Shown here one piece after another: positions 28,798 to 64,000 of a DNA stretch of 64,000 nucleotides (its first letter is position 1; every line of letters starts with the position of its first letter). The DNA comes from Flavobacterium gilvum (GTDB lineage: Bacteria > Bacteroidota > Bacteroidia > Flavobacteriales > Flavobacteriaceae), in the NCBI RefSeq assembly GCF_001761465.1, contig NZ_CP017479.1, positions 248,001-312,000 on the forward strand, given 5' to 3'. The notes beneath the pieces were generated by a model, which saw only the letters and a list, made by a program, of their open reading frames with translations, searched no databases and was not told the origin of the DNA. The position numbers and the translations under genes were made by a program.

Positions 28798-29460
28798 ATG
28801 AAAAATAAAAGAATGAAAGCATTATTGCTCATTGGATTTCTAATTATAAACACTGTCATCAGAGCGCAATCTGTTTCAACGGCCGAAGAGGATATTACAA
28901 AAGCAAAAGAGTGGATTACCTCTTTATCATTAAATGACAGCTCGAAGGAAAATAGATTAATACAAGTAGTTGCTACTCATCTTTCCACAATAAAAGATTG
29001 GCATAATACCCACCCCGCCTCTACAGTTCCTGCGGGAATTAATCCTCTGGACGGGAAGCCTCTTTCAGAACTTCATCGGCAAATTATTGCAGATTCGGCA
29101 ATACCTTCTACAACTCATGAAAGTTTAATGAGTGGGTTAAGAAAAGATTTAAGCGAAGACCAAGTAGCTTTGGTTTTAGACAAATACACTATTGGAAAAG
29201 TAGCTTTCACGATGAAAGGCTACCAATCTATTGTTCCTGATATGACAGCTACAGAAACTGCTGAAATTCAAAAATTATTAGAAAAGGCTCGTGAACAGGC
29301 AGTGGATTATAAGAGCATGAAAGAGATATCGGCTATTTTTGAAATTTATAAAACCCAAGCTGAACAATATTTAAACAACCACGGTCGTAATTGGCGTCAG
29401 ATGTATGGTGATTATACCAAAAAAATTAAGGCAGAAAAAGAAGCCAAGAAACAAAAGTAG
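28798..29460 (+). CDS. Secreted DUF3826-type protein
   Basis: The 220-residue protein has a signal peptide (ALLLIGFLIINTVIRAQS, cleaved about residue 24) and a helical mature domain. Segments such as HNTHPASTVPAGINPLDGKPL and DKYTIGKVAFTMKGYQSIVP match my recollection of DUF3826, a domain of unknown function found in Bacteroidota pectin loci. It is the first gene after tRNA-Val and convergent with the minus-strand enzyme cluster. The charged C-terminus is KKIKAEKEAKKQK. A periplasmic role in pectin breakdown is inferred from context only; no catalytic residues can be named. Confidence 0.75.
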   Translation: MKNKRMKALLLIGFLIINTVIRAQSVSTAEEDITKAKEWITSLSLNDSSKENRLIQVVATHLSTIKDWHNTHPASTVPAGINPLDGKPLSELHRQIIADSAIPSTTHESLMSGLRKDLSEDQVALVLDKYTIGKVAFTMKGYQSIVPDMTATETAEIQKLLEKAREQAVDYKSMKEISAIFEIYKTQAEQYLNNHGRNWRQMYGDYTKKIKAEKEAKKQK

Positions 29461-29480
29461 ACTTTTGTCTCAAAACCAAA

Positions 29481-29522
29481 AAAGGGCTGTCCAAAAGTAA
29501 TTTTCCGGACAGCCTCTTGATG
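29481..29522. terminator. Hairpin between the convergent DUF3826-type and GH2 genes
   Basis: GGGCTGTCC (29484-29492) and GGACAGCC (29507-29514), with an A-run before and a short T-containing tail after; it can serve both directions. Confidence 0.75.
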
Positions 29523-29567
29523 TGATATCTAATAAGGCCTTGAGTATAATTTTTCCCTAAACTGCCT

Positions 29568-31982
29568 CTATTCCACTTTTATTTCTATGGCTTTCGCCAA
29601 AATATCGATCCCCGTTGAAGCTTTTAACTGAATATTTTCTTTCTTTCCGTTAGATTGAATAATGGCGATACATTTACCATTAAATACTTTGCAAGAATTG
29701 GCTTTGAACGAATCCCAACCTGCCTGATAACCATTGTCAACTCCAACTAATTTTCCGCCACCTATCACTTCAAAATCGATTAGATTATTGGCGTTTGGCA
29801 CTAAGTTTCCGTCTTTATCAGTTATAGAAACGGTTACGTAAACCAAATCATAACTGTCATTTTTCAGGGTTTTCTTGTTGGCTACTAAAGCAATTTTCGA
29901 AGCTTCTCCAGCTGTTTTGATTTCTTTTTCCAAAACAACTTTTCCCCCTTTTCTAGAAATGGCTTTTATTGTTCCGGGTTCGAATTTTACACGCCATGAA
30001 ATGTGTAAATCGTCATTTTGCTTGGATTTTTTACCCAATGATTTTCCGTTAAGGAACAATTCGACTTCATCGGCATTGTTGTAATACGCCCAAACATCGA
30101 CTTCCTGTCCAGCCGTCCAATTCCAGTGAGGAAAAATATGCAAAACGGGTTTGGTCGTCCATTCACTTTGGTACATATAATACACATCTTTGGGAAAGCC
30201 AGCCAAATCAATAATTCCGAAGTACGAACTCCTTGCAGGATAAGGATACGGATCGGGTTCCCCAATATAATCGAATCCTGTCCAGATGAAAGTTCCCGCC
30301 ATAAAATCCTGTTTTTTGATGGTTTTCCAATTGTCTTCGTGAGTCGCTCCCCAATAGGATTTCACCTGATCGTAAGCCGAAACAGTCCAATCGGCATTGC
30401 CATCAAACGGAGCACCATATTTGGGTGGCCAAGTTTTTATCACATCCGAAGGTTGGTCATAATGTCCACGGGTTTCGAGCGCCGAAACACTCTCGGAAGC
30501 GAGTATCTTTTGCCCTTTGAAACGAACTGGAAAATCTTTGTAATCTTCGTGTTTATAATTGAATCCCAACAAATCCAAAGCACCCGATTGGTAAATAAAA
30601 TTTTTCTCAATAACATTTTCAGTCAAAGCGCTCGTTACGGGACGCGTTTTGTCTAGCGATTTAACAATTTGTGCCAATTCTCTAGTAATCGCAATTCCGG
30701 TGCTGTCAAATTGCTCACGGATTTCATTTCCGATACTCCACATCATCACCGACGGATGGTTGCGGTCTCTTTTGATAAAATCTTCCAAATCCTGTTTGTG
30801 CCACGCATCCCAATCTTTGTGGTAATCGTTGGTTACTTTTTTCTTTTTCCAAACATCAAAAGCTTCGTCCTGAACAATAAATCCCATCTCGTCGCACAAC
30901 TGCATCATTTCCAACGAATGTGGATTATGTGCCATTCGGATGGCATTAGCTCCCATTTCTTTCAGGATTTTCAGTTTTCTTTTTACGGCGTGAATATTTT
31001 CCACAGCCCCCAAAGCGCCGTTGTCGTGATGCAGACAAACGCCTAATATCTTTGTTGGTTTTCCATTCAATGAAAATCCTTTTTCGGCATCAAAACTGAA
31101 GAATCGGAAACCCAATGGAGTTTCATAATTGTCGATTAATTTTGAATTTTCATAGATTCTCGTCAGCACTTTGTACATATATGGATTTTCAGTATCCCAT
31201 AATTTTGGCTGATTAACGGTTAAATTATGAACCTTTTTTGCAGAAGTTTTTGGCTCAAATTTTTCTATAGAAGTGCTGTTTGCAACCTCAACATTGTTTG
31301 CATTTACTATTGAAGTTACCAGTTTGAATTCTTTTGCGGAAGCGTTTTCATTGTCAATAGTAACCTCACAATTAACGCTTGCTTTTTGTGCAGAAACCTC
31401 CGGAGTCGTTACATAAGTTCCCCATTTGGCCACGTGCAGTTTCTCGCTGACAACTAATCGCACATTTCTGTAAATTCCCGATCCCGTGTACCATCTTGAA
31501 TTGGGCTGCGCATCATTATCAACTTTGACAGCGATAACATTTGGTTTTCCAAAATACAAATATTGGGATAATTCATAACCGAAAGAAATATATCCGTTCG
31601 GGCGAATTCCCAACGAATGTCCATTTATGAATACTTCACTGTTTTTGAAAACACCATCAAATTCGATTGAAATGGCTTTGTTTTTCCAATTGGCAGGAAT
31701 GGTAAAAACTTTGCGGTACCAACCTTTTCCAGCTGGCAAGAATCCTTGCGCTTGTTTTGTTTTACTGTCTTTATCAAATGCTCCTTCAATGCTCCAATCG
31801 TGAGGCAAATTCAAAGTTCTCCAATCAGCGATATTGAAATTAGCATTTATTGCCTGAGGATAATCCCCTAGTTTAAAATTCCAGTTTTTATTAAAATCCT
31901 CAACGATTCGGGCTTTTTTAGTTTGGGAAAAACTTGCTATTGAAAGCAATAATACCAATACGATTCCTGTTTTTTTTACCAT
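29568..31982 (-). CDS. GH2 family exo-glycosidase (beta-galactosidase type)
   Basis: The 804-residue secreted enzyme starts with a signal peptide ending near SIASFSQ (residue 20). Order: jelly-roll sugar-binding domain (25-180), Ig-like domain (185-290), TIM barrel (295-580), and a C-terminal pair of beta domains of the DUF4982/Ig type (600-800). Acid/base is E420 in SIGNEI and the nucleophile is probably E497 in ILASESVS. GVCLHHDNGALGA and RMAHNPHS are conserved in the GH2 barrel. It is the last gene of the minus-strand cluster. The sugar removed may be beta-galactose, beta-glucuronic acid or a related residue of pectin side chains; the sequence does not settle it. Confidence 0.88.
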   Translation of the reverse strand: MVKKTGIVLVLLLSIASFSQTKKARIVEDFNKNWNFKLGDYPQAINANFNIADWRTLNLPHDWSIEGAFDKDSKTKQAQGFLPAGKGWYRKVFTIPANWKNKAISIEFDGVFKNSEVFINGHSLGIRPNGYISFGYELSQYLYFGKPNVIAVKVDNDAQPNSRWYTGSGIYRNVRLVVSEKLHVAKWGTYVTTPEVSAQKASVNCEVTIDNENASAKEFKLVTSIVNANNVEVANSTSIEKFEPKTSAKKVHNLTVNQPKLWDTENPYMYKVLTRIYENSKLIDNYETPLGFRFFSFDAEKGFSLNGKPTKILGVCLHHDNGALGAVENIHAVKRKLKILKEMGANAIRMAHNPHSLEMMQLCDEMGFIVQDEAFDVWKKKKVTNDYHKDWDAWHKQDLEDFIKRDRNHPSVMMWSIGNEIREQFDSTGIAITRELAQIVKSLDKTRPVTSALTENVIEKNFIYQSGALDLLGFNYKHEDYKDFPVRFKGQKILASESVSALETRGHYDQPSDVIKTWPPKYGAPFDGNADWTVSAYDQVKSYWGATHEDNWKTIKKQDFMAGTFIWTGFDYIGEPDPYPYPARSSYFGIIDLAGFPKDVYYMYQSEWTTKPVLHIFPHWNWTAGQEVDVWAYYNNADEVELFLNGKSLGKKSKQNDDLHISWRVKFEPGTIKAISRKGGKVVLEKEIKTAGEASKIALVANKKTLKNDSYDLVYVTVSITDKDGNLVPNANNLIDFEVIGGGKLVGVDNGYQAGWDSFKANSCKVFNGKCIAIIQSNGKKENIQLKASTGIDILAKAIEIKVE

Positions 31983-31999
31983 TGTAATTATTTTTTTTC

Positions 32000-32079
32000 A
32001 ACCATATAAGGCATATAAGGTCATTTAAGGAAAACTTAAACATATAACTTATATGAACTTATATGCCTTATATGGTTTA
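32000..32079. repeat. ATATAAGGCATATAAGG inverted repeat, copy 2
   Basis: ACCATATAAGGCATATAAGG is answered by TATATGCCTTATATGGT; located 18 bases upstream of the 804-residue GH2 start. A further partial arm lies at 32141-32160. Confidence 0.72.
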
Positions 32080-32166
32080 AATCCATCTCAATTTTTAATT
32101 ATTTTGTACACTCAAATAGAGCCGATTTATTTTAAAAACTTATATGACTTATATGTTTTTAAATAT

Positions 32167-35100
32167 TTACTGAAACTCAAAAGAATCTAGTAACAATCCC
32201 TGCATATCCTCTGATTCTAATGTGATTGTGTACGTCCCTGCGTTGATATAACCGCCTGATGTTGTATTCAAAACTTTCCATTTTTCGGGCGAAGGAGGAA
32301 ACTCAATCGTATCGTTTCTCATCAAAATTCCGTAAGCATCTTCCATTTTGAATTTGACTTTTAATGGTGTTTCATTTCGATTCATATATCGGAAACGCAT
32401 CAGGTAAATCCCGGCTACTCCAGGTTTTACTTCAAACTGAATGCTGTTTTTTGTTTTTTGTGTAAACTCAACATAATCGCTCTTTTTAAAATTAGCCTTC
32501 TGAATTCCCGATCCATCCGTTTTGGCAGTTTCGGCTTCAATAAGCACCACAGGACGCGAATCGTCTTTTTCGCCCATATCATACGTTGGAACCACAGCAA
32601 CAGAACTCAAACTTTCAAAATTTTCGAAAAATACTTTTTCGCCCTTTTTTACTTTTTTCTGAAAAACAGTAAACTCAATACCTTCTGAATTTCTAGCCGA
32701 ACCTTCTATTTCTTTATATCCAGGAATTGAATCTTTTGGTTTCCGAGGCACTAAAAGATAAATATCAGAATCTTCTTTGGTCTCAAAAGAACCTGTTGTT
32801 TTTGCATTGACAGGAAACTGCAAATACTCGGCACCAAAAACCTCCGAAGGTAATTTTGTAAAAAAAACATTCCCATTCGAATATTGCACCGAATTTATAT
32901 CAAGCCAAGAATCTATTTTGCAAGCTGTTTTATCCTCTGTATCAATAACGACATTCTGAATATTTCCTGAAGATGCAGGCGCTCCTTTCACTGTTTTGTC
33001 TTTGGTCGCAATGGCTATTGCCGAAATAATTGCCTGACTCGCTTTTACATTTGGAAACGAAATCACAATTTTCCCATTTTTACTTTTTACAACAAAAGTT
33101 TTCTTCAATGCCTTGTCGTGCCCAACCTGATTCCAAATATCAAAATCTTTTAAAACCACTTTATCATTAATAGCCACATCAAACAAACGCCAGCCTTTGC
33201 AATCCAATCCGCCACCAGTTCCGTACCAAGGTTCGATGAAATACAATTCCACCAAATATTCTCCATCTGGAGCTGGAAATTCGTAACGCAGTTTGTCGAT
33301 TCCATATCTAAAATCCTGAAATAATTTCCAATCATTTGTCCCCGCAATTGGATCGAAAGTACTTCTTTGACTCGCATAAAAATCAGGAAGCTGTTTGAAA
33401 TTATCTGTCCAAGACAAAGAACCCCAAGTCCCATCGCCACTTTTATGCACATCCGCCTGCCAGGTATTCCCAAAAGCATCTGTCATTTGGCCACCTCCGC
33501 AATTTACTCTGTAGATATAATTATAGTCTTTTGCTGGTTTTAAAAACACATCATTCTCTGTTTCCAATACGCTGAAATTAGGTGCTTTCGGTAAACCGTT
33601 CAATATGATATAATCTTTGGCCACAGCTTTTCCGTTTAAATAACCAACAGCGTATAAAACATTATACTTAATCATGACATTATTCCATTGAAAATGCTGA
33701 CCCAAGCCTGGATTTTTAAGTCTGCCCAGTGATGTTTTATCCACATTATTGAACAATTCCACCTCATCACAATTGGAATACACATCAATTCCGCTTTTAA
33801 TTCCGGCAGAAGCCCAACGATTTGTCCAAGTATGCGAAACGATATACACCATCGGGTTGGTTTTGTTCGAAACATAATTGGCTCGGTACATATAATAAGC
33901 GTCCAGAGGTTCTCCCCAAATACTGAAAAGTCCTTTGTAATTTACAGGCCCCACTTTGTCTATATCCCTGAATCCTTCGCCGTTTTGAACGCGTCCCGGA
34001 TTTTCGTGCGAGGCAAAAAGCCAGTTGAATTGCCCAGCGATTTTATCTTTAACCGACTCGGCTTCGCGAACTTTTATTTCCATTAATTGGGAAAAACGGT
34101 TTTCGCTCAATGTCCCTTTTTGGTCAAATTCGCCTTCGGTATGTAAATCGTGTGAACGCCATGCGCCGTATTCTCCATTTAATAATTGTTTGCTCATTTC
34201 GACATCGTAATTAAACGGATCGCCACCATAGGTTCCCGACCAGTTTTGCACGACATTCCAGTCGGTTCCTTCTCCTCCGTTGCAGGTTGTAACAATGCGT
34301 TGTGAAGCTGACATCGGATCCATTTCTCGAATGATTTTGGTGCATTCTTCGGCAAATGCAGCCGGAATCGTGCTCTCGTTTTGCAATCCCCACATCACAA
34401 CTGAAGGACTGTTTCTGCGTTCTTTAATCCATTCACGCAATAAGGTTTTGAAATTCTCTTTGAATTCGGGAGTATCGTACCAAATATGCGCCGAAAACTG
34501 GCTCCAAAACAAAATACCATTTTCGTCTAATTCCTTCTGATATTCCAAATTATGTGGTTGATGCGCTTCGCGAAAGGCATTGAATCCGCTGGCTTTTATT
34601 TGTTCAATTCTCGAATGGATTTGTTCTTTCGAAAACGAATGACTGTTCCCTATTAAATGTTCGTATTCACAGGTTCCGTTAATAAACAATGGCTCATCGT
34701 TGATAAAAAAACGATTGTCTTTTCCATCTCTGCTCACCGGCCAGCTTACCCAACGAATTCCGTAAGGTGTTTTTAGCTCATCAATTTTTTTCCCTTTTTC
34801 TAAAATAGTGGTAACCAATTGGTACAAATAAGGATTGGCTGGCGACCATAATTTTGGCTGTAAAATTTCGGGGAGCGATTGTGCTATTTCGTTTGTTTTA
34901 CCTACAAAGCTGTTCGTTTCACTTTTTGAAGTAGCAACTTTTTTTCCGTCTTTGTCATAAAGAGTATTTACTATTGTTAAATACCTGTCCGATTTTCCGT
35001 AGTTTTTGATTTCGGCGGTAACATTTAAAACAGCTTTTTCTTTGGAAGTTGCTTTGTCATTCCAAATATGGACACCAAAAGGTTCTATCCGAATGGCATT

Positions 35101-35691
35101 GGTAACGACCAAAGTCACCGGTCTGAAAATCCCCATCGGTTGTGAACCTTCTGAAAATCCCCACTCGCCTGAACAACCTCCGCAAACCCAAGGCAAATCG
35201 GCGATAAATGACGGATGTGAAGCTTTGACTACTATATTATTTTCTTTTTCGAAAGAAACAGCATTGGTTATATTTAGTGTAAAAGTGGTTCTCCCGCCTT
35301 TATGTTCACCAACTTTTTTTCCGTTTACCCAAACAGTAGCATAGGAACTTACTCCTTCAAAAAAAAGGAAAAGCTTTTTTGAAGCATATTCTTTGTCTAG
35401 TTTTAATGTTTTGTGATACCAGGCTATTCCATGCAGATTGCCATGTTTTGTTCTTCGGAATCCGTAATACTGATCCCAATTGTGAGGAACGTTTACTTTT
35501 TCCCAGTCGGCGTTTGTCTTTAGGTTTTTTACAAATGTTTCTTCTTGTGACGGATTATCTAAAATGATTGTTTCCCAAGAAGAATTAAGCGAAACTTCTT
35601 TACGGAATCCCGCTGATTCCTTATTGCTTTGGCTAAATACCATGCAAAAACTTGAAAAAAAACTAACTATAAAAAAAACTGCTTTCTTCAT
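32167..35691 (-). CDS. Large GH2 family enzyme with malectin and C-terminal carbohydrate-binding modules
   Basis: The 1174-residue protein has a signal peptide (to about residue 20), a GH2 sugar-binding domain (35-195), an Ig-like domain (200-310) and a TIM barrel (315-640) with acid/base E439 in MWGLQNES and nucleophile E507 in LLNGEYGAW. A malectin-like domain follows at about 735-905 (YIYRVNCGGGQMTDAFG). The C-terminal ~130 residues are a CBM6/35-like module starting VLIEAETAKTDGSG. The GLQNE variant replaces the usual IGNE. This many-domain form is typical of enzymes on complex glycans. It sits between the other GH2 and the uronidase-like gene. Substrate not determinable from sequence. 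Confidence 0.87.
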   Translation of the reverse strand: MKKAVFFIVSFFSSFCMVFSQSNKESAGFRKEVSLNSSWETIILDNPSQEETFVKNLKTNADWEKVNVPHNWDQYYGFRRTKHGNLHGIAWYHKTLKLDKEYASKKLFLFFEGVSSYATVWVNGKKVGEHKGGRTTFTLNITNAVSFEKENNIVVKASHPSFIADLPWVCGGCSGEWGFSEGSQPMGIFRPVTLVVTNAIRIEPFGVHIWNDKATSKEKAVLNVTAEIKNYGKSDRYLTIVNTLYDKDGKKVATSKSETNSFVGKTNEIAQSLPEILQPKLWSPANPYLYQLVTTILEKGKKIDELKTPYGIRWVSWPVSRDGKDNRFFINDEPLFINGTCEYEHLIGNSHSFSKEQIHSRIEQIKASGFNAFREAHQPHNLEYQKELDENGILFWSQFSAHIWYDTPEFKENFKTLLREWIKERRNSPSVVMWGLQNESTIPAAFAEECTKIIREMDPMSASQRIVTTCNGGEGTDWNVVQNWSGTYGGDPFNYDVEMSKQLLNGEYGAWRSHDLHTEGEFDQKGTLSENRFSQLMEIKVREAESVKDKIAGQFNWLFASHENPGRVQNGEGFRDIDKVGPVNYKGLFSIWGEPLDAYYMYRANYVSNKTNPMVYIVSHTWTNRWASAGIKSGIDVYSNCDEVELFNNVDKTSLGRLKNPGLGQHFQWNNVMIKYNVLYAVGYLNGKAVAKDYIILNGLPKAPNFSVLETENDVFLKPAKDYNYIYRVNCGGGQMTDAFGNTWQADVHKSGDGTWGSLSWTDNFKQLPDFYASQRSTFDPIAGTNDWKLFQDFRYGIDKLRYEFPAPDGEYLVELYFIEPWYGTGGGLDCKGWRLFDVAINDKVVLKDFDIWNQVGHDKALKKTFVVKSKNGKIVISFPNVKASQAIISAIAIATKDKTVKGAPASSGNIQNVVIDTEDKTACKIDSWLDINSVQYSNGNVFFTKLPSEVFGAEYLQFPVNAKTTGSFETKEDSDIYLLVPRKPKDSIPGYKEIEGSARNSEGIEFTVFQKKVKKGEKVFFENFESLSSVAVVPTYDMGEKDDSRPVVLIEAETAKTDGSGIQKANFKKSDYVEFTQKTKNSIQFEVKPGVAGIYLMRFRYMNRNETPLKVKFKMEDAYGILMRNDTIEFPPSPEKWKVLNTTSGGYINAGTYTITLESEDMQGLLLDSFEFQ

Positions 35692-39684: not shown

Positions 39685-39697
39685 ATTCCTTTATTTT

Positions 39698-39850
39698 ACC
39701 ATTAAGATATTAAGAAAATTAAGCGTTACACTTAATAAAACTTAATATCTTAATGGTTCATTTATAATTTTACTCTTCTTATTTTTGACTTTAAGACATT
39801 TAGAAAATCAAGCCTTACACTTAATCTTCTTAATATCTTAATAGTTCATT
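39698..39850. repeat. ACCATTAAGATATTAAG inverted repeats, two units
   Basis: Unit 1 has perfect 17-base arms (39698-39714, 39741-39757). Unit 2 (about 39791-39847) is a diverged copy. The same family fills 53141-53345. Confidence 0.72.
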
Positions 39851-43945: not shown

Positions 43946-43999
43946 AGTTGTATTTTTTGTCACTGCTTTAAAAGATTCTTATACTTTTTTCTGAGAAAG

Positions 44000-45674: not shown

Positions 45675-45696
45675 ATTCAAATTATTTTAATTTTTT

Positions 45697-53140: not shown

Positions 53141-53345
53141 TTGAACCATTAAGATATTAAGTTGCATTAAGCGTTGACTTTTTTATTTCTTATAATTAAG
53201 TTCCATTAAGCTTTCAACTAAATTTTCTTAATATTTTTTATTGAACCATTAAGAGATTAAGTCATATTAAGAGTCAGCTTCTTTATTCTAAAAATTATGT
53301 TTGTATTAAGCATTCAACTTAATTTCCTTAATTTCTTAATGGTAA
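53141..53345. repeat. TTAAGATATTAAG repeat block
   Basis: Two tandem units each start TTGAACCATTAAG and have return arms of the CTTAATTTCTTAATGGT type; related to the block at 39.7 kb. The left side touches the annotated start of the GH78 gene. Confidence 0.68.
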
Positions 53346-55303: not shown

Positions 55304-56221
55304 TTATTTCTTTTCAATTAATCCTTTTAAAACGTCTTCGGAAATGGTTGTAATCGTTCCGTGTTTGTGTCCTTCGGGAAGGCTTATTTTTGATGACACA
55401 TCTTCGAAATGCACAAAATCCGAAGTGCTTAAAGCTTTGTAATTTTTGGAGCCGTAATTATCGTAATACAGCAGCCAATTTTTACCGACTTTTACCACCG
55501 TTGGTCCTTCAGATAAATATTCTGTCAATGGCTGTGAACTTTTTTCGAAAGGCCCCAAAGGCGATTTTCCGAAAGCTACTTTTATGTTTCGCATTGGTCT
55601 CGTATTATCTTTTAGAACCAAGACATAATCCTTTTTCCCTTTTTTGACAATCACACAGTCAATCACACTAAATCCGGGATCATAATACAATTTTGTATCC
55701 GAAAAGGTTTTGAAATCCTTGGTAGTTACGTAATACATTCGGTGGTTGTTTTTTTCTTCTTCGACCCCTTTAGGAAATCGGAATGGAATTGTCGATGCCC
55801 AAATAATGATGTATTCTTTTTTTACATCATCATAAAAAATCTCCGGTGCCCAAACGTTTACAACATCAGGCTCGTTTTTCATCACGGGAATATATTCTTG
55901 TTTTGACCAATGAATCAAATCTTTGGAACTCGCGTATCCAAAACCGTTTCCGCCTTTCCAGTCGGTTGTCCAAACCAAATGATAGGTTCCATCTCCTCCT
56001 TTGGTGATTGATGGGTCACGCATTATTTTGCTGGCACCAATTTCGGGTTTTAGAAATGAACCCTGCAAACCTTTCCAGTTGTAGCCATCTTCACTGTAGG
56101 CAAGATATAAACCTTCGGTCGCTGGTTCCCTGAAAGATGTGAAAAGAAAAATTTCCTTTTTTTTCTGGGAGTAGCTTACCGCAAAAAGTGAAAGCGTTAG
56201 TATAATAAATATTTTTCTCAT
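55304..56221 (-). CDS. GH43-like five-bladed beta-propeller glycosidase
   Basis: From ATG 56221 the product is 305 residues with a signal peptide (FIILTLSLFAVSYS). A longer frame to 56278 would translate part of a repeat and is rejected. The propeller has the GH43-type candidates D69 (MRDPSI), D188 (VIDCVIV) and E238 (SEGPTVV), with spacing as expected for general base, pKa modulator and acid. VWAPEIFYDD is a family strand. GH43 enzymes release L-arabinofuranose or xylose; arabinofuranosidase activity fits the pectin context. Subfamily unclear. Confidence 0.8.
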   Translation of the reverse strand: MRKIFIILTLSLFAVSYSQKKKEIFLFTSFREPATEGLYLAYSEDGYNWKGLQGSFLKPEIGASKIMRDPSITKGGDGTYHLVWTTDWKGGNGFGYASSKDLIHWSKQEYIPVMKNEPDVVNVWAPEIFYDDVKKEYIIIWASTIPFRFPKGVEEEKNNHRMYYVTTKDFKTFSDTKLYYDPGFSVIDCVIVKKGKKDYVLVLKDNTRPMRNIKVAFGKSPLGPFEKSSQPLTEYLSEGPTVVKVGKNWLLYYDNYGSKNYKALSTSDFVHFEDVSSKISLPEGHKHGTITTISEDVLKGLIEKK

Positions 56222-56236
56222 CGTTATGTTTTTATT

Positions 56237-56470
56237 CTGCAAGGTTTCCAAAACATAAATTTCGAAAGAATGCAGCAATTATTTTATCGTGTCTAAACCG
56301 ACTTGTTTTGTCATTCCGACGGAGGAGGAATCTCCGCAATCATAATCCACAAATCTTGGTCGAGCTTCTAACGGAGATTCCTCCTCCGTCGGAATGACAA
56401 TATTGTGGAAAAAATCAGCCGAATATTGTCTTGCTCATCTTCCGAAATTTATGTTTTGGAAACCTTGCAG
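56237..56470. mobile_element. 234-base nested palindromic element with 28-base terminal inverted repeats
   Basis: Perfect 28-base ends (56237-56264 and 56443-56470, outer bases CTGCAAGGTTTCC) enclose a second perfect palindrome with 29-base arms (56308-56336, 56372-56400) of the TTGTCATTCCGACGG family. No coding capacity. The architecture matches the 162-base element at 19.7 kb with different outer ends. Confidence 0.6.
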
Positions 56471-56484: not shown

Positions 56485-58059
56485 CTATTCTGTAATTGCT
56501 TTTTTATCCAGATCTTTTCCTTTTTTAACGGTTGTCGTTACGTTGTTGAACACATTATTTTTGAGGAAAATATTTTTGGTTTCTTTTCCATCGGCTTCAA
56601 GGAAAACATCCGTTGAATTGAATGGAAAATTGTTGTTGATCATAATATTCGAAGCATTATCGATTTTGATAACCGGAACTCCTTTGATTGGCGTCGAAGA
56701 ACCTACGTTGTCCAGAATCAGGTTTTTGGAATCACTGATTTTGAAAGACGAACCGATTGATGCGTTTACTTTTACATCGTGAAACTCGATGTCTGAAGCG
56801 GTGATTACCGTAAAACCTTCTTTTCCATCCATATTGATGTCTGAAAAAGTAATGTTTTGAATTGGCATTTCGGAAATTCCGCGTACAAAACCGGCCTTGT
56901 TTACATTTCCACCAGTGACATTGCTGATGTGCATATTTCTAAAAATTGGCGTACGCTCCGTAACAGGCTCAGCCGCATTGTCTTTATCATAAAACAAATC
57001 AAGAATAATAGCTTCTTCTTTGATGTTTTTCATCACGATATTATCCACACGAATATCCTCGACAACTCCGCCACGACCACGAGCCGATTTGATTCGGATT
57101 CCTCTATCGGTTCCATCAAAAACACAGTTTGAAATAGTTACTTTTTTGATTCCTCCCGACATTTCGCTTCCGATAACAACACCTCCGTGACCGCTTAACA
57201 TCGTGCAGTTTGTAATGGTTACGTTCTCGGTTGCTTTTCCGTATTTGCGCCCATCTGCGTCCCTTCCTGATTTGATGGTAATACAATCATCACCAACACT
57301 AATATGGCAATTTGAAATATGAACGTTTGTACAGGACGAAGGATTGATTCCGTCTGTATTTGGCGAATAGGGATTAAAAATCGAAATTCCGGTTACGGTT
57401 ACATTATCACAAAATTCCGGATTTATTGTCCAGAAAGGGGAGTTTTTGAACGTAACGCCTTCAATCAAAATATTTTTGCAGTTGTATGCCTGAAAGAAAG
57501 ATGGCCTAAAAAACTTTTTGTCAATCGTTCTTTTGTAATACGGCTCATATTGAATTCCCGGATTTTGCTCTACCCACATAGTTTGGTATTTTGTCAACGG
57601 AATAGGCGTTTTTGCAGTTTCAATTCGGTACACTTCATTCCACCAGGCTTTACCTTGTCCGTCGATAATTCCTCTACCTGTAATGGTAATATTCTCTGCA
57701 TCTTTGGCATAGAATAATGGTGAAAAACTTTTCATTACGATTCCCTCGTAACGCATTTCCACATACGGTAAAAAATCGTCAAAATTCTCCGAAAATTTCA
57801 AGATTGCACCCGAATCTAAATGGATGGTAATGTTACTTCTTAATTTTAAAGCTCCCGTTAAATATTCACCAGCGGGAAAAAAAATAGTTCCGCCTCCGTT
57901 TGCAGCAGCTTTTTCTATTGCTTTTTGTATCGCTTCGGTACATTTTATTCCTTTGTTGTTTCCACCTTCGTTTAGAATGTTTAACCACCCGTCATTTGCG
58001 AAAGCGGTATTCAATCCGATAATAAAACAGAAAGCGATTAGTATGTTTTTAATTTTCAT
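56485..58059 (-). CDS. GH28 family polygalacturonase-type enzyme
   Basis: The 524-residue secreted protein (signal to about residue 22) is a right-handed beta-helix with all GH28 motifs: NTDG (234-237), GDD (256-258), GHG (290-292) and RIK (322-324). An N-terminal Pfam-style lid begins NKGIKCTEAIQKAIEKA. It hydrolyses alpha-1,4-galacturonosyl linkages by inversion; the insertion between residues 140 and 190 (EVYRIETAK...YKRTIDKKF) is seen in exo-acting Bacteroidota members, suggesting release of single galacturonates from oligosaccharides. The upstream neighbour is the GH140-type gene. Confidence 0.93.
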   Translation of the reverse strand: MKIKNILIAFCFIIGLNTAFANDGWLNILNEGGNNKGIKCTEAIQKAIEKAAANGGGTIFFPAGEYLTGALKLRSNITIHLDSGAILKFSENFDDFLPYVEMRYEGIVMKSFSPLFYAKDAENITITGRGIIDGQGKAWWNEVYRIETAKTPIPLTKYQTMWVEQNPGIQYEPYYKRTIDKKFFRPSFFQAYNCKNILIEGVTFKNSPFWTINPEFCDNVTVTGISIFNPYSPNTDGINPSSCTNVHISNCHISVGDDCITIKSGRDADGRKYGKATENVTITNCTMLSGHGGVVIGSEMSGGIKKVTISNCVFDGTDRGIRIKSARGRGGVVEDIRVDNIVMKNIKEEAIILDLFYDKDNAAEPVTERTPIFRNMHISNVTGGNVNKAGFVRGISEMPIQNITFSDINMDGKEGFTVITASDIEFHDVKVNASIGSSFKISDSKNLILDNVGSSTPIKGVPVIKIDNASNIMINNNFPFNSTDVFLEADGKETKNIFLKNNVFNNVTTTVKKGKDLDKKAITE

Positions 58060-58093
58060 AGTGCTGTTATTTTTTTGGGCACAAAGACACTTT

Positions 58094-58140
58094 TTTTGGC
58101 CACGGATTTCACAGATTAAACGGATTAATTCGGATTTTTT
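58094..58140. repeat. GGCCACGGATT / CACAGATTAAACGGATT arm
   Basis: A single arm of the CACAGATTAA family between the GH28 and GH140 genes. A more complete copy at 59561-59618 lies upstream of the GH140 start. Confidence 0.5.
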
Positions 58141-59539
58141 ATTTGTTCGACGTTAAAATCAATACCCAGTCGTTTCCGTCTTCTTTTATGCCGGATGGCT
58201 TGAATTTCTTTATTCCTTTGTTATCAAAAATTCCGATTTTAGTTTTTTGACCGTTTCTTGGATTGTACCAACTCGCGGTTACTTTGGTTCCGCCAATTTT
58301 GCCCATATTAACGGCAATTTCTCTTCCAGTATAGGTATAAATCAAAGCATAATTTTTCCCTTTGGTCGCTACAATATAATCGTATTTTTCACCTTGATTG
58401 GCAACTAATGATTGGTCAGGAACTCTTTCTAAATATGGAAATTCCAACATCAGTTTTTTAATATAAATCATTTGTCCAGCTCCGAGTGAATTGATTGCTG
58501 TAGTCCATAATTCTTTGTTTCCGTAAGCAGGTTTATCCCCTTTTCTGAACATTTGCATTACAGCATTGTTTCCATAAGTATAACCTGCTCCTCCTGCAAA
58601 AACCGACCAATATCCGTAGCGTCTTACATCATTTGCTGTCCATTTTGGTTGCAAAGTATCGTGCAAACCGTGAGGAATTCCTTCGTAAGAAGGTTCTCCG
58701 TCAAGCGTAGGTTTTGTTGGTTTTAAATTCCAATCTCTATGGATAAATTTGTAATTATCTTCTTTGAAAGCGGTTTTCACTGTATCCTGATCGTATCTTT
58801 TGTGACCAGATTGAAACATATTGAAATCCAGCCAGGACGCATTGTTATAATCGTCCGAAGAATCTGTTCTTCCGAAAGGATGGAACGTCACCAATTGATT
58901 CGGATTATTTGTTTTTAAAGTATTCCCGATAGCATTCCAGATGTCCTGAAATTCATTTCCGCGTGTGTCTCCACCGTTTAACCAAATCACATTGGTTCTG
59001 TTTTTATATCGGTCAGCCAAAAATTTCGCATATTGAATTGCCTGTTCTTTATTCACTTTATCTCCTTTTGAAACATTGGTTCCCCAAACCGGAACCATTG
59101 CAAGGTAAATTCCGTTTTTCTGAGCCACATCCAAAGTGAAATCTACATGATCCCAATAATCGTATTCCTCCTTATTATTGAAGTTATTTCCAGGAGTTGT
59201 AATTGGTTTTGAAACGTCTTCGTCTACTAAAGCTTTGGCTCCATAAACGTTTACCGCATTTATGTTATGCAAAACCATAACCTGTACTACGTTGAATCCT
59301 TTGGCTTTTCTATCGGCAAAATACTTTTCGACTCCAGCTCTGTCCAATTTTCCGAATGTCAGCCAACCTGTATCACCCAACCAGAAAAAAGGTTTTCCAT
59401 CTTCGGTAACAAAATAATGCTGATTTTTTGAAACTTTTATTTGAGGTAACTTTGCAGATTGTGAAAATCCACTTTGTGTAATAAATATAAAGCTTATGCT
59501 AAGTGCTAATAGATATTTAATTTTTATACTCATTTTCAT
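58139..59539 (-). CDS. GH140-type apiosidase
   Basis: The 466-residue secreted protein (signal ending SGFSQ, residue 27) has a DUF4038 TIM barrel (about 35-380) and a C-terminal beta domain of the putative collagen-binding type (385-465). Family landmarks are GKPFFWLGDTGWLTF, GFNVVQVMVLHN, the likely acid/base D191 in WLNGGDTRG and nucleophile E282 in TLDGEPSYEGIPHG. GH140 enzymes release apiose-linked side chains of rhamnogalacturonan II by cutting between apiose and the galacturonan backbone. This is the most diagnostic gene for the substrate of the locus. Conservative codon 1 at 59539; a second ATG is two codons later. Confidence 0.85.
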   Translation of the reverse strand: MKMSIKIKYLLALSISFIFITQSGFSQSAKLPQIKVSKNQHYFVTEDGKPFFWLGDTGWLTFGKLDRAGVEKYFADRKAKGFNVVQVMVLHNINAVNVYGAKALVDEDVSKPITTPGNNFNNKEEYDYWDHVDFTLDVAQKNGIYLAMVPVWGTNVSKGDKVNKEQAIQYAKFLADRYKNRTNVIWLNGGDTRGNEFQDIWNAIGNTLKTNNPNQLVTFHPFGRTDSSDDYNNASWLDFNMFQSGHKRYDQDTVKTAFKEDNYKFIHRDWNLKPTKPTLDGEPSYEGIPHGLHDTLQPKWTANDVRRYGYWSVFAGGAGYTYGNNAVMQMFRKGDKPAYGNKELWTTAINSLGAGQMIYIKKLMLEFPYLERVPDQSLVANQGEKYDYIVATKGKNYALIYTYTGREIAVNMGKIGGTKVTASWYNPRNGQKTKIGIFDNKGIKKFKPSGIKEDGNDWVLILTSNK

Positions 59540-59560
59540 TTTATTTTGAATTATGATTTA

Positions 59561-59618
59561 TGGCCACCGATTTTACGGATTAAACGGATTCTCACCGATT
59601 GTTATAATCTGTGGTTAT
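59561..59618. repeat. GGCCACCGATT / AATCTGTGG inverted repeat
   Basis: GGCCACCGATTTTACGGATT pairs imperfectly with AATCTGTGGTT; same family as at 23.4, 48.6 and 58.1 kb. It sits at the 3' end of the beta-helix/TIM fusion gene. Confidence 0.5.
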
Positions 59619-62600
59619 TTTTTTTTCACTACAAATACTACTTTTTCTTTGATTTCAGCTTGAGGAATAGTTACGTTCTTTCCTCCGCTGATAGTTGCTT
59701 TTTTGACAACACTTCCGGTAGCTCCATTAATTACATACACTTCGAAAGTTCCTTTGTAATTTGACAAATCAACTGAAACATCTTGGTTGTTTTTCAGATA
59801 AAAAAGATAGGCATTTCCTTTGTTTTCCATTTTCCAAAGATTGTCTGAAAACGAAGTCCCCTCTACAAAATTCATACCAATGAGAGCCGAATAAAACGCA
59901 GGAAGTTCAATTTTAGGAATATTTGGTAATGAAGCTCCGGCCATTAAAGCCGCCCATCCAAAACGTGGAGAACCATCTGTAGAATACAAAATAACTTTCT
60001 CAGGATATTTTTCACGATATTCACGAACTGCTCTATACACCTGACCATCCGTTTCTTTACCTACTTTCAATTTTCGAGCGTGCTGACGTGGCGCCAAATT
60101 GACACCTCCTTCGGGTGCATACGCCGAACCGTCTTCTTTGTAATACCAATAACGAATATCAATAGCATCGACAGTTTTGGCTCTGTTCGCATCGTTCAAA
60201 ATGGCATCCTGAACATCTTTGGTTGCACTTAAACCAATAATTCCTTTTTTGCCCGTTTCGTTTTTCCATTTTTGAACTTCATCCAACCAAAATTGCATAA
60301 AATGAAGTGGTCCTGTATATTCGGCACTCGTCAACTGAATGACGTTGCTGTTTTCCTGAAAGTTTTCCAATGATTTCCGGATGAAACCTTGATGCAATTT
60401 TTTTCTTGCAGCATTGGTAACATCATAAAACTGTTCTGCCATAAAAATACGCTTGTCTCCTGCATACGGTGGTGGTTCTGGAAAACCAGTACTGTTTATA
60501 TTATTGGCTGAACGCCAAGGTGAACTCGCCCAATGCGCTCCAGCCTCAATAATATTGTGTTGAAAATACTGCTGATTGACCAATAATTGTCCTTTGGCTT
60601 CCGCCAAATTCGCAAAACGCGACAGGCGATCCCAGTACCAGTCATTGAATTTTGTCAAATCGTATTTACTCAATTGGTCCCAAGCCAAATCCTGACCACT
60701 GCGGGCAAAAGGTTGTTCGTAAAACGGCGGCCAAACATCGGCATCAAAACGGCGAACGCGTTCGTGATCATCCATGCGACGCTCGTACCACAATCCATAA
60801 TTATGTTCCAAAGCGACCATATTATTGGTACTCAAATAATCTACCACTTCGTTGATATTGTCTGTAAATCCGGTACCTCTTCTGCCGGGAACAAATCTTG
60901 TAACGTCCGGCAAAGATTTTGAAATATCGCTGTCTCGAAGACTTCCTCTCCACCATGGCACATTCAATCGGTCTCCGGCAATTAATTTATCCTCAAAAGT
61001 CAACCAACCGTTCTTTACAATTACTTTGGATTTGTTGTCCGCAACTGTCGAATTTATTTTTAAATCATTGGCATTTTTAAGTCCCGAAGCATTAGTATTA
61101 ATTGGATTCAATTTAGAAACTTCTAAAATCCATTCAACTAAATTTTCCTTTCTGCTAACTGACTCCTTAGTTAATTGCTGCGCCACTTCGACAGAAGGAC
61201 TTGAGGAAGGTTCCGAACCTAAATCATAAATATGAGGGTCAACAGGTAGTTTTCCTAATCTGTTTTCCAACTGCGTATAAAACAAACTTCGCGGACTAAT
61301 GTGGCCGTTTACATCTTTCCAGTGACCGTCACCAGCCATAATTCCGCCCCAAGTTCCAAAAGCCCAATTTTGAGCTGTTGGCGGACTGTAACATTCAATT
61401 TTTGAAGCAGATGTTTCCCAGATTACGCTATTGGCGGCAGTCCAACCTGCACCTCTGCCGTTCTGTTCTCTGTTGTTATAACTTAAAGCGTGTCCATCAA
61501 CATACGATACTTCAAAGAGTATTCCTGTAGCCCAACTGCCTATCGCTCCGCTATTATTGAAAGGCTGAAACGATTCGCATTGCACAAAAACATTTGGCCC
61601 CGCAGTTCCAAATCCGCCTACCGAAAAATCGTGGTAACCATTTTCAGAATAACAACGCTGAAACAAAGTTTGTTGGCCTTCGGTATAAAAAGTATGTCGT
61701 CTAAAACCTCCTATTTCTGAAATTGGTTCGGTTGCAATACAATCTTCAACCGTAATTTGTTGAGCTGATTTTAATGCAGCAACTGCACCACCTGAAAAAT
61801 GCTTAAAATTCACTTGTTTTACCCAAGCATTTTTCGTGTTTTCGATGCTGATTCCCTGCCATCTGTGCTCTTCATCTTTAGGATTTGATGTATCATAAGT
61901 CGATTTCATCAGGATGTTTTCAATCCCGATTTGTTCAATTCTACCCGGCCAAGAATATACAGTAACTTTTGCAGTTCCGTATTTATCATCCAAAGCCATT
62001 GTCAATGGTGCGTTCAATGTTACTTCATTGCCATTGATTTTGGCAACTACCCTATTCCAGGTTATATCCCAATCATTTTTTTTCCAGCCAACCCAAGCTG
62101 TTTCTGCACCAAAATCATCCATTTTCAATTCTTTAATCCAATTATCGGTTAAAGCTTTGCTGATGATAATTTCATCGGAAGGTTTTAATTTGGAAGCATT
62201 TTTCAATTGAATTTTTTGTGTGCCTAGCGGCGTATAGGAATTTCCTATTTCTAATGTCTCGCCAAGTTTTTTATCATCCGCACCCAAAATTCGGATTACA
62301 GATTCTCTCTTTACTCCGGTTCCCAACAGTACGGTTCCGTTTTCTGTATTTCCGCTTCCGCGAAGAACCACACCCGATTTTTTTATATATAAAGTTCCAC
62401 TAATTTTGAAAATTCCTTTATCCAAAAGAACTGCGCCTCTAAAACCCGATTTGTCCGGTTTTAGATTACTTACATAATCAATTGCAGCTTGTATTTTTTG
62501 GGTAGCATCCTCTTCTTGTTTTGGCACAAAAATTTTATTGTCCAAATTTGGAATCGTTTTTTCCGAAGCCATATAACCGGCATACGAAAAATCAGGAATT

Positions 62601-62770
62601 TGGTTTCCTTGGCTATCAGCCGTAAAAGAAAGTTTCCCTTCTTTGTTTTTTACAATATCAGGAAATGTATTTTGCGCCACGCTTATATTGGCACAAAAGA
62701 AAACAACAAAACAGGATAAAACGAGTAAATCCTGTTTTATTATTCTATTTTTTAATTGGATAAAATTCAC
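59615..62770 (-). CDS. Beta-helix plus TIM-barrel fusion protein (DUF6298-like)
   Basis: The 1051-residue secreted protein begins at a GTG (62770) with a signal peptide (LLVLSCFVVFFCANISVAQ). Residues about 70-520 are a pectate-lyase-like right-handed beta-helix (KIQAAIDYVSNLKPD, VLRGSGNTENGTVLLGTG, GGFRRHTFYTEGQQTLFQRC). Residues about 590-960 are a TIM barrel with VDAIDIRYWYYKEDG and VILYSTDGSPRFGW. The last ~70 residues are a small beta domain like that closing GH140 proteins. I recall the second domain as DUF6298. No catalytic pair is established; D/E residues at barrel strand ends (AEYTGP, DIRYW) are candidates. The fusion suggests one protein cutting backbone and side chain. Confidence 0.72.
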   Translation of the reverse strand: MNFIQLKNRIIKQDLLVLSCFVVFFCANISVAQNTFPDIVKNKEGKLSFTADSQGNQIPDFSYAGYMASEKTIPNLDNKIFVPKQEEDATQKIQAAIDYVSNLKPDKSGFRGAVLLDKGIFKISGTLYIKKSGVVLRGSGNTENGTVLLGTGVKRESVIRILGADDKKLGETLEIGNSYTPLGTQKIQLKNASKLKPSDEIIISKALTDNWIKELKMDDFGAETAWVGWKKNDWDITWNRVVAKINGNEVTLNAPLTMALDDKYGTAKVTVYSWPGRIEQIGIENILMKSTYDTSNPKDEEHRWQGISIENTKNAWVKQVNFKHFSGGAVAALKSAQQITVEDCIATEPISEIGGFRRHTFYTEGQQTLFQRCYSENGYHDFSVGGFGTAGPNVFVQCESFQPFNNSGAIGSWATGILFEVSYVDGHALSYNNREQNGRGAGWTAANSVIWETSASKIECYSPPTAQNWAFGTWGGIMAGDGHWKDVNGHISPRSLFYTQLENRLGKLPVDPHIYDLGSEPSSSPSVEVAQQLTKESVSRKENLVEWILEVSKLNPINTNASGLKNANDLKINSTVADNKSKVIVKNGWLTFEDKLIAGDRLNVPWWRGSLRDSDISKSLPDVTRFVPGRRGTGFTDNINEVVDYLSTNNMVALEHNYGLWYERRMDDHERVRRFDADVWPPFYEQPFARSGQDLAWDQLSKYDLTKFNDWYWDRLSRFANLAEAKGQLLVNQQYFQHNIIEAGAHWASSPWRSANNINSTGFPEPPPYAGDKRIFMAEQFYDVTNAARKKLHQGFIRKSLENFQENSNVIQLTSAEYTGPLHFMQFWLDEVQKWKNETGKKGIIGLSATKDVQDAILNDANRAKTVDAIDIRYWYYKEDGSAYAPEGGVNLAPRQHARKLKVGKETDGQVYRAVREYREKYPEKVILYSTDGSPRFGWAALMAGASLPNIPKIELPAFYSALIGMNFVEGTSFSDNLWKMENKGNAYLFYLKNNQDVSVDLSNYKGTFEVYVINGATGSVVKKATISGGKNVTIPQAEIKEKVVFVVKKK

Positions 62771-62868
62771 TTCTGTTTTCTTTTTAGATTTTCATTGAAT
62801 TTTTAGAATATAGAAGAAAGAGTAAAGAACATAGACTTTTCCAAAAAAACATTTTTTTCTATAATGTA

Positions 62869-62960
62869 AGCTCGATTGCTAAAACATATACCGCTCCGAT
62901 GGAGCTCAAATTCAGCAACATTTACGCTTTCTACAAACATTACGCTCCTAACGGAGCTAA
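62869..62960. repeat. CGCTCC(N)GGAGC repeat pair
   Basis: ACCGCTCCGATGGAGCT and TTACGCTCCTAACGGAGCT are two small hairpins spaced by about 45 bases, between the fusion gene and the pectate lyase gene. Confidence 0.6.
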
Positions 62961-63024
62961 AAATCAATTGAATTGATTTTAAATAATAATAGAACTCAAG
63001 TCTACACTCTTTCTTCTTTGCTCT

Positions 63025-64000
63025 TTACTGCAATAATCCTTTTAACTGTGCCAATGTATCCGTGTTATTTTCAGTTTTCTTCCAATCTGTTTTTTTGCTT
63101 GGATCAATACCGTTAAAATATTTCTCGATATTGGTATAACCGTCACCGTTTAAGTCTTTACTGGCATCGGAAGCATCTTTTGGATTCAAACCATATTTAT
63201 TTTCCCAAGCATCTGGAATTCCATCACCATCGGTATCTTTATAGGCTTTTCCTTTATAATCAGGATAACCGCCCACTTGATCAGGATGTGTTATAATTCC
63301 TTTTTTATACGAATCTGCAGGCAATCTTCTTTTGATATATTCTTTACCAATTGAATTTTCCAATCCGTCTTTGACTTCAATTTTTCCGGTGCGAACTTGT
63401 TTGACAATGCGTTCGTCAACCGCGTCTCTTTTTGGAATATTTGCCCCAACATTATTCAATACAAACTCATAAGCTTCTTCAGCCTTCATAATGGTAATAT
63501 CCGGCATTAAAAAAGGTTTTGGCTGTTTGATTAATTCTAAATATTCTTTGGATTGTTCCAATGAAAGGTCTTCCAATTGTACACCACCATTCCAGTTATC
63601 AGCTGTAACTTCGGGAGCATCTACAATATAGTTTCCAGAAATATACGCTCTTCCGAAAGTTTTTGGTTTCATATAACCCGATTCTGGTTTCAGGATTCTG
63701 TAACGAATTGGTTCATTTTTTGGAGTAATTGGCCCCGGTTTAAAATAATTATTGATGATATTAAACAACGAGCGATAATCGCCTCCATCCAAAGAACGGT
63801 TCCACCAGTTGAATACCACGTTATTTACAAAATTGAAGTCGCCATACATTCCGATAGAACAATTTCTAGAAATATTATCAGCCCATAAATTTCTCATAAA
63901 AGTACTGTTTAACCCTCCAATTGTACTACCAAAAGCATGGTTATAAGTATCCAAACCTTCAGAAGAAATTGTATTTTGAATCGTAATATTTACCGCTGGT
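63025..64000 (-). CDS. Pectate lyase (PL1-like), C-terminal part with calcium repeats
   Basis: The gene runs off the right edge; the frame is open to base 64000, so the TTG at 63954 is not its start. The visible ~324 residues begin PAVNITIQNTISSEGLDTYN, continue with the beta-helix segment GLNSTFMRNLWADN and NVVFNWWNRS typical of Bacteroidota PL1 lyases, and end with a thrombospondin type 3-like calcium tail DTDGDGIPDAWE...DLNGDGYTNIEKYF. Such lyases cut homogalacturonan by beta-elimination. A charged stretch KTDWKKTENNTDTLAQL follows the calcium tail to the C-terminus. The signal peptide is outside the window. Confidence 0.85.
   Translation of the reverse strand, partial: PAVNITIQNTISSEGLDTYNHAFGSTIGGLNSTFMRNLWADNISRNCSIGMYGDFNFVNNVVFNWWNRSLDGGDYRSLFNIINNYFKPGPITPKNEPIRYRILKPESGYMKPKTFGRAYISGNYIVDAPEVTADNWNGGVQLEDLSLEQSKEYLELIKQPKPFLMPDITIMKAEEAYEFVLNNVGANIPKRDAVDERIVKQVRTGKIEVKDGLENSIGKEYIKRRLPADSYKKGIITHPDQVGGYPDYKGKAYKDTDGDGIPDAWENKYGLNPKDASDASKDLNGDGYTNIEKYFNGIDPSKKTDWKKTENNTDTLAQLKGLLQ

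What the first reader, a model, noticed from the sequence alone, without database searches (positions are those of the whole stretch)
28798..64000. A ~35 kb enzyme cluster predicted to dismantle rhamnogalacturonan II
GH140 (apiosidase), GH95, GH28, two GH78, two GH2, a GH43-like enzyme, a CE19-like esterase, a uronidase-like protein and a pectate lyase occur together. This is close to the enzyme set known from the Bacteroides RG-II degradation loci. Two propeller proteins, a secreted TIM barrel, an MGH1-like lipoprotein and a DUF3826 protein have no assigned step, so they may cover linkages not yet explained in environmental bacteria.
Basis: partly seen in the sequence, partly recalled or inferred. 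Interest (0 to 1): 0.75.

Follow-up and report, generated by a model that had tools for sequence, protein, structure and literature searches.

The report
Flavobacterium rhamnogalacturonan II degradation locus

Summary
The window (a complete 4.40-Mb genome, almost certainly Flavobacterium) shows one end of a rhamnogalacturonan II (RG-II) utilisation locus. It does not end at 64000: 37 same-strand genes run to window-scale position 107326 (77.8 kb), adding SusC/SusD, GH127 aceric acid hydrolase, GH139, GH106, GH137 and GH141. Four of the five 'unassigned' proteins have a counterpart in Bacteroides RG-II enzymes: propeller 53349-55226 is GH143, the MGH1-like lipoprotein is GH142, DUF3826 is the C-terminal domain of the CE19 esterase BT1017 (activity unknown), and propeller 39857-41005 has the sialidase (GH33) fold and is fused to GH78 in three relatives, so it is probably the Kdo hydrolase of side chain C. 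The secreted TIM barrel and a DUF6298 protein stay unassigned, yet both occur in the same 19 of 395 Bacteroidota genomes that have GH143 in RG-II context. GH141 is fused to a mutarotase-type domain and sits with a symporter, an oxidoreductase and an L-fucose dehydrogenase, which suggests, unproven, use of the one RG-II linkage B. thetaiotaomicron leaves. New member of a known kind; function predicted, not assayed.

The parts
28548..28623 (+). tRNA-Val, flank of the locus
   Evidence: ARAGORN
28798..29460 (+). DUF3826 protein, free-standing counterpart of the C-terminal domain of BT1017
   Evidence: PF12875 E 6.4e-65; 6goc residues 473-654, E 1.6e-72
29568..31982 (-). GH2, secreted; candidate beta-galactosidase or beta-galacturonidase
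   Evidence: Pfam GH2 domains; NF041463 GalB 852 bits, below cut-off 900
32167..35691 (-). GH2 beta-glucuronidase with malectin domain = C-terminal part of BT0996 without GH137
   Evidence: PF11721; NF049877 positions 360-1400, 1578 bits, cut-off for the whole fusion 1800
35915..38647 (-). GH138 alpha-galacturonidase (BT0997 type)
   Evidence: NF049878 1555 bits over cut-off 1300
38791..39684 (-). Secreted TIM barrel with ketose-3-epimerase fold; no assigned step, tracks RG-II loci
39857..41005 (-). Lipoprotein with sialidase (GH33) fold; candidate Kdo hydrolase of side chain C
41192..43963 (-). GH78 alpha-L-rhamnosidase, partner of the sialidase-fold protein
   Evidence: Pfam; fusion in relatives
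44112..45680 (-). GH142 beta-L-arabinofuranosidase lipoprotein = C-terminal half of BT1020
   Evidence: 5mqr residues 613-1102, E 8e-228
46090..48555 (-). GH95, candidate alpha-L-galactosidase of chain A
   Evidence: PF22124 1.7e-183
48766..50193 (-). CE19 pectin methylesterase = BT1017 without DUF3826; triad S287, D357, H393
   Evidence: 6goc E 1.1e-124; residue numbers; triad from PMC7939467
50339..53167 (-). GH78, counterpart of BT1019 by position
   Evidence: Pfam; order in G238
53349..55226 (-). GH143 Dha hydrolase propeller = N-terminal half of BT1020
   Evidence: PF24067 3.7e-123; 5mqr residues 19-609, E 1.7e-224
55304..56278 (-). GH43-like, counterpart of BT1021 alpha-L-arabinofuranosidase by position
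   Evidence: PF04616 1.9e-10; order in G238
56485..58059 (-). GH28, counterpart of BT1018 alpha-galacturonidase by position
   Evidence: PF00295 1e-44; order in G238
58139..59539 (-). GH140 apiosidase
   Evidence: PF13204 1.5e-109
59615..62770 (-). DUF6298 protein, weak beta-helix signals before residue 480; no assigned step, tracks RG-II loci
   Evidence: PF19815 1.1e-235; for the weak signals; same 19 of 395 genomes
63025..64000 (-). PL1-like pectate lyase, continues to 64731 outside the window
   Evidence: NF041900 148.8 bits, E 2.1e-43, cut-off 840

Best explanation
The region is one end of a single large polysaccharide utilisation locus of a Flavobacterium dedicated to RG-II. Lyases and esterases open the backbone, SusC/SusD import fragments, and periplasmic or lipid-anchored exo-enzymes strip the chains: chain A by GH95, GH2, GH141, GH138, another GH2 and GH140; chain B by GH137, GH106, GH139, a GH2, GH127 and GH140; chain C by GH78 plus the sialidase-fold Kdo hydrolase; chain D by GH142 plus GH143; the arabinose branch by the GH43-like enzyme; the backbone by GH28. 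Shown here: family membership, gene order, conservation, split modules. Inferred from characterised relatives: each enzyme's linkage, its localisation and the order of attack.
For: Over curated cut-offs: GH138, GH127 aceric acid hydrolase 1106 against 950. GH143 and GH142 align end to end with the two halves of 5mqr. CE19 matches 6goc with the published triad intact (PMC7939467). GH139 matches 9hyq at E 4e-281 with the published catalytic residues kept (PMC12282258). GH137 matches BT0996 model positions 4-366, GH141 its insertion domain; SusC/SusD present. 11 to 16 of 16 window proteins recur in each of 17 other RG-II loci. In genome G238, of the genus of B. thetaiotaomicron, the order DUF3826, GH43-like, GH143+GH142, GH78, GH28, CE19+DUF3826 agrees with what is published for BT1022 to BT1017 (passages of PMC7939467 and PMC6828813; BT1020 by the Pfam family name).
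Against: No growth, expression or enzyme data for this strain. GH95, GH2 and GH78 hold several specificities; linkages are by analogy. GH43-like and GH28 match only general models, below the specific NCBIfam cut-offs; BT0996 parts and PL1-like lyases are also below theirs.
Confidence: 0.94

Rival explanations
1. A general pectin locus (homogalacturonan and RG-I) that happens to include RG-II-like families.
For: It also encodes GH28, two PL1-like lyases, a third PelZ-like protein, CE8 and a GH88/GH105-type protein, which can serve homogalacturonan or RG-I.
Against: GH137, GH138, GH139, GH142, GH143 and aceric acid hydrolase target RG-II linkages, several of them (Dha, aceric acid, 2-O-methyl-fucose) with sugars not known from other plant glycans (recalled; for 2-O-methyl-fucose PMC12282258). 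Each was found once among the locus genes scanned. No rhamnogalacturonan lyase family (PL4, PL9, PL11) appeared in the Pfam scans of the locus genes.
Confidence: 0.05
2. The sialidase-fold protein (39857-41005) is a true sialidase or a non-enzymatic binding protein, not a Kdo hydrolase.
For: Two usual GH33 catalytic positions look changed by motif reading: His48 for the first arginine, Gln217 for the glutamate (by-eye mapping). The best structural neighbours are sialidases.
Against: Relatives of at least 55% identity occur in 19 of 19 RG-II genomes and 0 of 14 RG-II-negative Flavobacterium genomes, one of which has a 38% relative. It is fused to GH78 in 3 of 17 loci, matching the Rha-Kdo disaccharide of chain C. 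A DHDPS-family aldolase adjoins it in G150 and G269, though in no Flavobacterium genome searched. A GH33 Kdo hydrolase is named among RG-II enzymes (PMC11214529, passage).
Confidence: 0.15
3. The TIM barrel and the DUF6298 protein are passengers with a general periplasmic role.
For: The TIM barrel's expected metal site looks degenerate: Asn206 where an Asp is expected (Lys in G238), and E181 is Arg in G394, so it may not be a metal isomerase.
Against: Each is found in the same 19 of 395 genomes as GH143 in RG-II context, one full-length copy per genome, in several bacterial families.
Confidence: 0.15

Closest known systems
Bacteroides thetaiotaomicron RG-II loci (Ndeh et al. 2017, recalled, not held; BT1017 paper PMC7939467 and GH139 paper PMC12282258 read in part)
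   Same: Same signature families: CE19, GH28, GH43-like, GH78, GH95, GH106, GH127, GH137, GH138, GH139, GH140, GH141, GH142, GH143, PL1-like, GH2, SusC/SusD.
   Different: Here one 78-kb same-strand block; bimodular enzymes are split; GH141 carries an extra mutarotase-type domain and sits with a symporter, an oxidoreductase and an L-fucose dehydrogenase; no hybrid two-component regulator was recognised in the scanned genes.
BT1020 (GH143-GH142), PDB 5mqr
   Same: Both halves present, aligned end to end.
   Different: Two genes 7.7 kb apart with GH95, CE19 and GH78 between them.
BT1017 (CE19-DUF3826), PDB 6goc
   Same: Esterase with conserved triad; DUF3826 counterpart.
   Different: Two genes about 19 kb apart on opposite strands. 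The other 9 RG-II-positive Flavobacterium genomes have a single DUF3826 gene each, of the second type (64848-65519).
BT0996 (GH137-GH2)
   Same: Both parts match the NF049877 model.
   Different: Two genes 55 kb apart.

Membership tests
RG-II utilisation locus of the Bacteroides type | Signature RG-II families encoded together | tested here: met
   GH137 to GH143, GH127 aceric acid hydrolase and CE19 in one 78-kb block
RG-II utilisation locus of the Bacteroides type | SusC/SusD pair | tested here: met
   PF07980, PF14322 and PF07715 at window scale 67410-72754
RG-II utilisation locus of the Bacteroides type | Induction by RG-II | not testable with these tools
   needs transcriptomics
GH140 | Apiosidase catalytic domain | tested here: met
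   PF13204 positions 1-319 of 320, E 1.5e-109; catalytic residues not checked
GH143 | BT1020 N-terminal propeller over its whole length | tested here: met
GH142 | BT1020 C-terminal module over its whole length | tested here: met
CE19 | Match to BT1017 with Ser-Asp-His triad | tested here: met
   S287, D357, H393 (residues from PMC7939467, numbering offset 6 in the PDB chain)
GH139 | Match to a solved GH139 with Q411, N412, E561, W683, D723 | tested here: met
   Q383, N384, E533, W647, D687 (residues from PMC12282258, numbering offset 1 in chain 9hyq, taken to be BT0984)
GH33 (Kdo hydrolase) | Sialidase fold with Asp boxes | tested here: met
GH33 (Kdo hydrolase) | Arginine triad, Asp acid/base, Tyr-Glu nucleophile pair (recalled) | tested here: inconclusive
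   By-eye mapping: D74, R233, R294, Y322 kept; H48 and Q217 at two positions; all invariant in 19 sequences
GH33 (Kdo hydrolase) | Release of Kdo | not testable with these tools
   needs assay
GH95 alpha-L-galactosidase | L-Gal rather than L-Fuc specificity | not tested
   family by PF22124; specificity by analogy only
Metal-dependent ketose 3-epimerase (TIM barrel 38791-39684) | E-D-H-E metal site (recalled) | tested here: inconclusive
   Motif mapping gives E181, N206, H233, E269; N206 where Asp is expected

The most novel reading that the evidence does not exclude
Environmental Bacteroidota carry an extended RG-II system: (a) DUF6298 and the secreted epimerase-fold protein are two unrecognised obligate RG-II families; (b) the GH141-mutarotase fusion with the Na+ symporter, Gfo/Idh oxidoreductase and L-fucose dehydrogenase is a module that imports and breaks 2-O-Me-xylose-alpha1,3-fucose, the disaccharide that B. 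thetaiotaomicron leaves in its medium, possibly by oxidation and elimination instead of hydrolysis.
Probability: 0.3. Interest if true: 0.72.

Novelty: new member of a known kind. Interest (0 to 1): 0.5.

Why it matters
It shows the gut RG-II pathway is shared by environmental Bacteroidota, gives single-module versions of enzymes studied as fusions, and names two protein families that track RG-II loci as strictly as the signature enzyme GH143 yet have no function. It also gives a testable candidate route for the one RG-II linkage the model gut degrader cannot cleave.

Tried and rejected
DUF6298 as the missing 2-O-Me-xylosidase: weakened, because the Bacteroides-type genome G238 has it too. A Kdo-type aldolase as universal partner of the sialidase-fold protein: found in 5 of 19 RG-II genomes (68% identity in G269, 40-44% in three) and 0 of 14 negatives, in none of the 10 RG-II Flavobacterium genomes. 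A uniform story 'CE19-DUF3826 was split in Flavobacterium': not borne out; only this genome of 10 has the BT1017-type DUF3826 gene, while some Sphingobacteriia-like loci have it beside GH78 and the propeller, the fusion was seen in G238 only, and G394 has a CE19 frame without it. Recent mobility: tRNA-Val lies at one end, an IS3-type transposase pair at the other, but no direct repeat of 40 bases or more was found in 28000-64000 and the locus is widespread in the genus, so I do not call it a recent island. TIM barrel profile against PDB: no match at E 0.001. The 568-aa protein at window scale 91827-93533: no Pfam match up to E 5; in 10 of 10 RG-II-positive and 0 of 14 negative Flavobacterium genomes, plus G286, of 33 searched; some relatives carry PF22847, a GH43-like N-terminal domain. 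It stays unassigned. SusC and SusD are less conserved (9 of 17 loci at 40% identity), and the last four genes of the run (101519-107326) are rarely found within 50 kb of GH143 (0 to 2 of 17), partly because the stretches end there, so their membership is less sure.

Papers. Ten searches: 12 and 14 gave none, 16 one, 38 ten, 43 listed 30 of 404, 44 three, 58 listed 15 of 21, 62 listed 12 of 28, 80 (DUF6298) none, 107 listed 12 of 35. I read passages of PMC7939467 (plus outline and section 4), PMC10807430, PMC7922503, PMC10154630, PMC6828813, PMC11214529, PMC4769552, PMC12282258 (plus outline) and PMC6499787. Ndeh et al. 2017 was not held; what I say of it is recalled. I saw no paper describing this Flavobacterium locus in the listings of searches, which cover only this open library and were capped lists in the last.

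Dropped rows and choices. Of 22 genomes over the GH143 cut-off I treat 19 as RG-II loci. G190 and G031, and a second copy in G238, were set aside because their GH143 is only 37-40% identical and none of the 16 window proteins was counted at 40% identity within 50 kb; G297 was a weak match. This choice was made after seeing the data; with G190 and G031 counted, DUF6298 and the TIM barrel are in 19 of 21, with G297 19 of 22. Surroundings were fetched for 17 of the other 18 RG-II genomes (not G324). The 80 named loci are the best of 589 and lean to Flavobacterium.

Full report
What is there. The window is G000:C1:248001-312000 of a complete 4,402,594-base genome. Genes 29568-62770 lie on the minus strand; DUF3826 at 28798-29460 is on the plus strand next to tRNA-Val. 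The same-strand run continues past the window to 107326, 37 called genes over 77,759 bases, then an IS3-type transposase pair and, further on, a C25-peptidase (PorU-like) and a PorV gene.

Outside the window, on the window's scale: PL1-like lyase 63025-64731; second DUF3826 64848-65519; second PL1-like lyase 65599-67308; SusD 67410-69380; SusC 69398-72754; CE8 73732-74742; GH127 aceric acid hydrolase 74811-76835 (1106 bits, cut-off 950); PelZ-like protein 76973-79426; GH139 79438-81768 (9hyq, E 4e-281); SASA-type esterase 81923-83356; GH106 83507-86944; LacZ-type GH2 87091-90402; GH137 90546-91700; unassigned 91827-93533; GH78-like 93667-95847; SSF symporter 95852-97432; Gfo/Idh oxidoreductase 97429-98493; GH141 with a C-terminal RhaM-type mutarotase domain (PF05336, 1.3e-10) 98634-101135; bifunctional aldolase/dehydrogenase 101519-103645 (NF006191, 1402 bits over cut-off 1240); SDR 104202-105002 (NF052481 L-fucose dehydrogenase, 354.7 over cut-off 300); ADH 105021-106037; GH88/GH105-type 106091-107326.

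Conservation. In 17 RG-II loci from other genomes, 16 window proteins were counted at 40% identity or more within 50 kb of GH143: 16 of 16 in 10 loci, 15 in two, 14, 13 and 11 in the rest (lowest: G269, G394, G286). GH143, GH142, GH95, one GH78, the GH43-like protein and GH140 are in 17 of 17; GH138, CE19, GH137, the other GH78 and the sialidase-fold protein in 16; SusC/SusD at that identity in 9. Some missing genes lie further off: in G394 and G238 a second stretch holds TIM barrel or DUF6298, SusC/SusD, GH106, SASA, and in G238 GH139; in G269 SSF, Gfo/Idh, GH141, TIM barrel, CE19 and the sialidase-fold protein.

Split modules. In 5mqr, the chain behind the BT_1020 family name, residues 19-609 match the 625-aa protein 53349-55226 and 613-1102 match the 522-aa lipoprotein 44112-45680. 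The chain of BT1017 (6goc) matches the esterase 48766-50193 at 25-460 and DUF3826 28798-29460 at 473-654. The BT0996 model is matched at 4-366 by 90546-91700 and at 360-1400 by 32167-35691, 521 and 1578 bits. A fourth pair came from relatives: GH78 41192-43963 and the sialidase-fold protein 39857-41005, neighbours here, are one open frame in G238, G394 and G150. Among the 17 loci, GH143 and GH142 are fused in 2 (G238, G394) and separate in 15, adjacent in two of these (G269, G150); GH137 and GH2 are fused in the same 2; CE19 and DUF3826 in G238 only. In the genus of G238, 26 of 28 genomes with a strong match to a GH142 piece (E below 1e-60) have it in an open frame of 1105 residues or more, by length alone. 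None of 80 named loci shows the GH143-GH142 fusion; 60 show a separate GH142 on the stretch of about 20 kb. Fusion thus looks like a trait of the Bacteroides side; I did not test the direction with a tree. For DUF3826 the picture is patchy: this genome has the BT1017-type gene, the other 9 RG-II Flavobacterium genomes do not.

The GH141 module. In 13 of 13 genomes where GH141 was seen beside the symporter and Gfo/Idh genes (own, 7 other Flavobacterium, G033, G080, G138, G150, G269), GH141 carries the RhaM-type domain; in the two genomes with GH141 but without those neighbours in the fetched stretch (G166, G238) it lacks it. G343 was cut by the stretch end, G324 was not fetched, and no GH141 was seen in G394 and G286. 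L-fucose dehydrogenase lies close by here, an 87-89% relative of it in G206, G170, G316, G222, G025 and G202, and G202 adds Amidohydro_2 and FAA-hydrolase genes, which together resemble the oxidative L-fucose pathway (recalled). B. thetaiotaomicron accumulates 2-O-Me-Xyl-alpha1,3-Fuc (PMC7939467, section 4). A genome that keeps fucose catabolism beside GH141 may cleave that disaccharide; this is inference. L-galactose from chain A is another possible substrate of the dehydrogenase.

Verdict. A well-supported RG-II locus in an environmental Bacteroidota: known system, new member. Co-occurrence of GH137, 138, 139, 142 and 143 in Bacteroidetes is in print (PMC7922503, passages), so that part is not new. 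New here, as far as my searches go: the 78-kb block, the split modules, the placing of four of the five orphans, and two RG-II-tracking families still without a role.

Noticed in passing
39697-39716, 39739-39758, 39827-39846, 53144-53163, 53244-53263: A 20-base element (AACTTAATATCTTAATGGTT, up to 3 mismatches) occurs 5 times, expected 0.02, at the TIM|propeller and GH78|GH143 junctions (53144 falls in the first codons of the longest GH78 frame). Possibly a small intergenic repeat; not searched genome-wide.
   Followed up: partly
L003 11827-13533 (window scale 91827-93533): Orphan of the locus whose N-terminal part resembles the C-terminal domain of GH138 (E 2.3e-20) and some of whose relatives match a GH43-like domain; a candidate new glycosidase.
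   Followed up: partly
G190, G031 and the second copy in G238 (L025, L026, L031): GH143 relatives at 37-40% identity with none of the other window proteins at 40% identity within 50 kb: perhaps a related activity on another glycan.
   Followed up: no
L004 7724-9084 (window scale 107724-109084): IS3-type transposase pair just past the end of the locus.
   Followed up: no
L189 (Sinomicrobium pectinilyticum): GH43-like and GH143 read as one 918-aa open frame, another possible fusion of RG-II modules.
   Followed up: no
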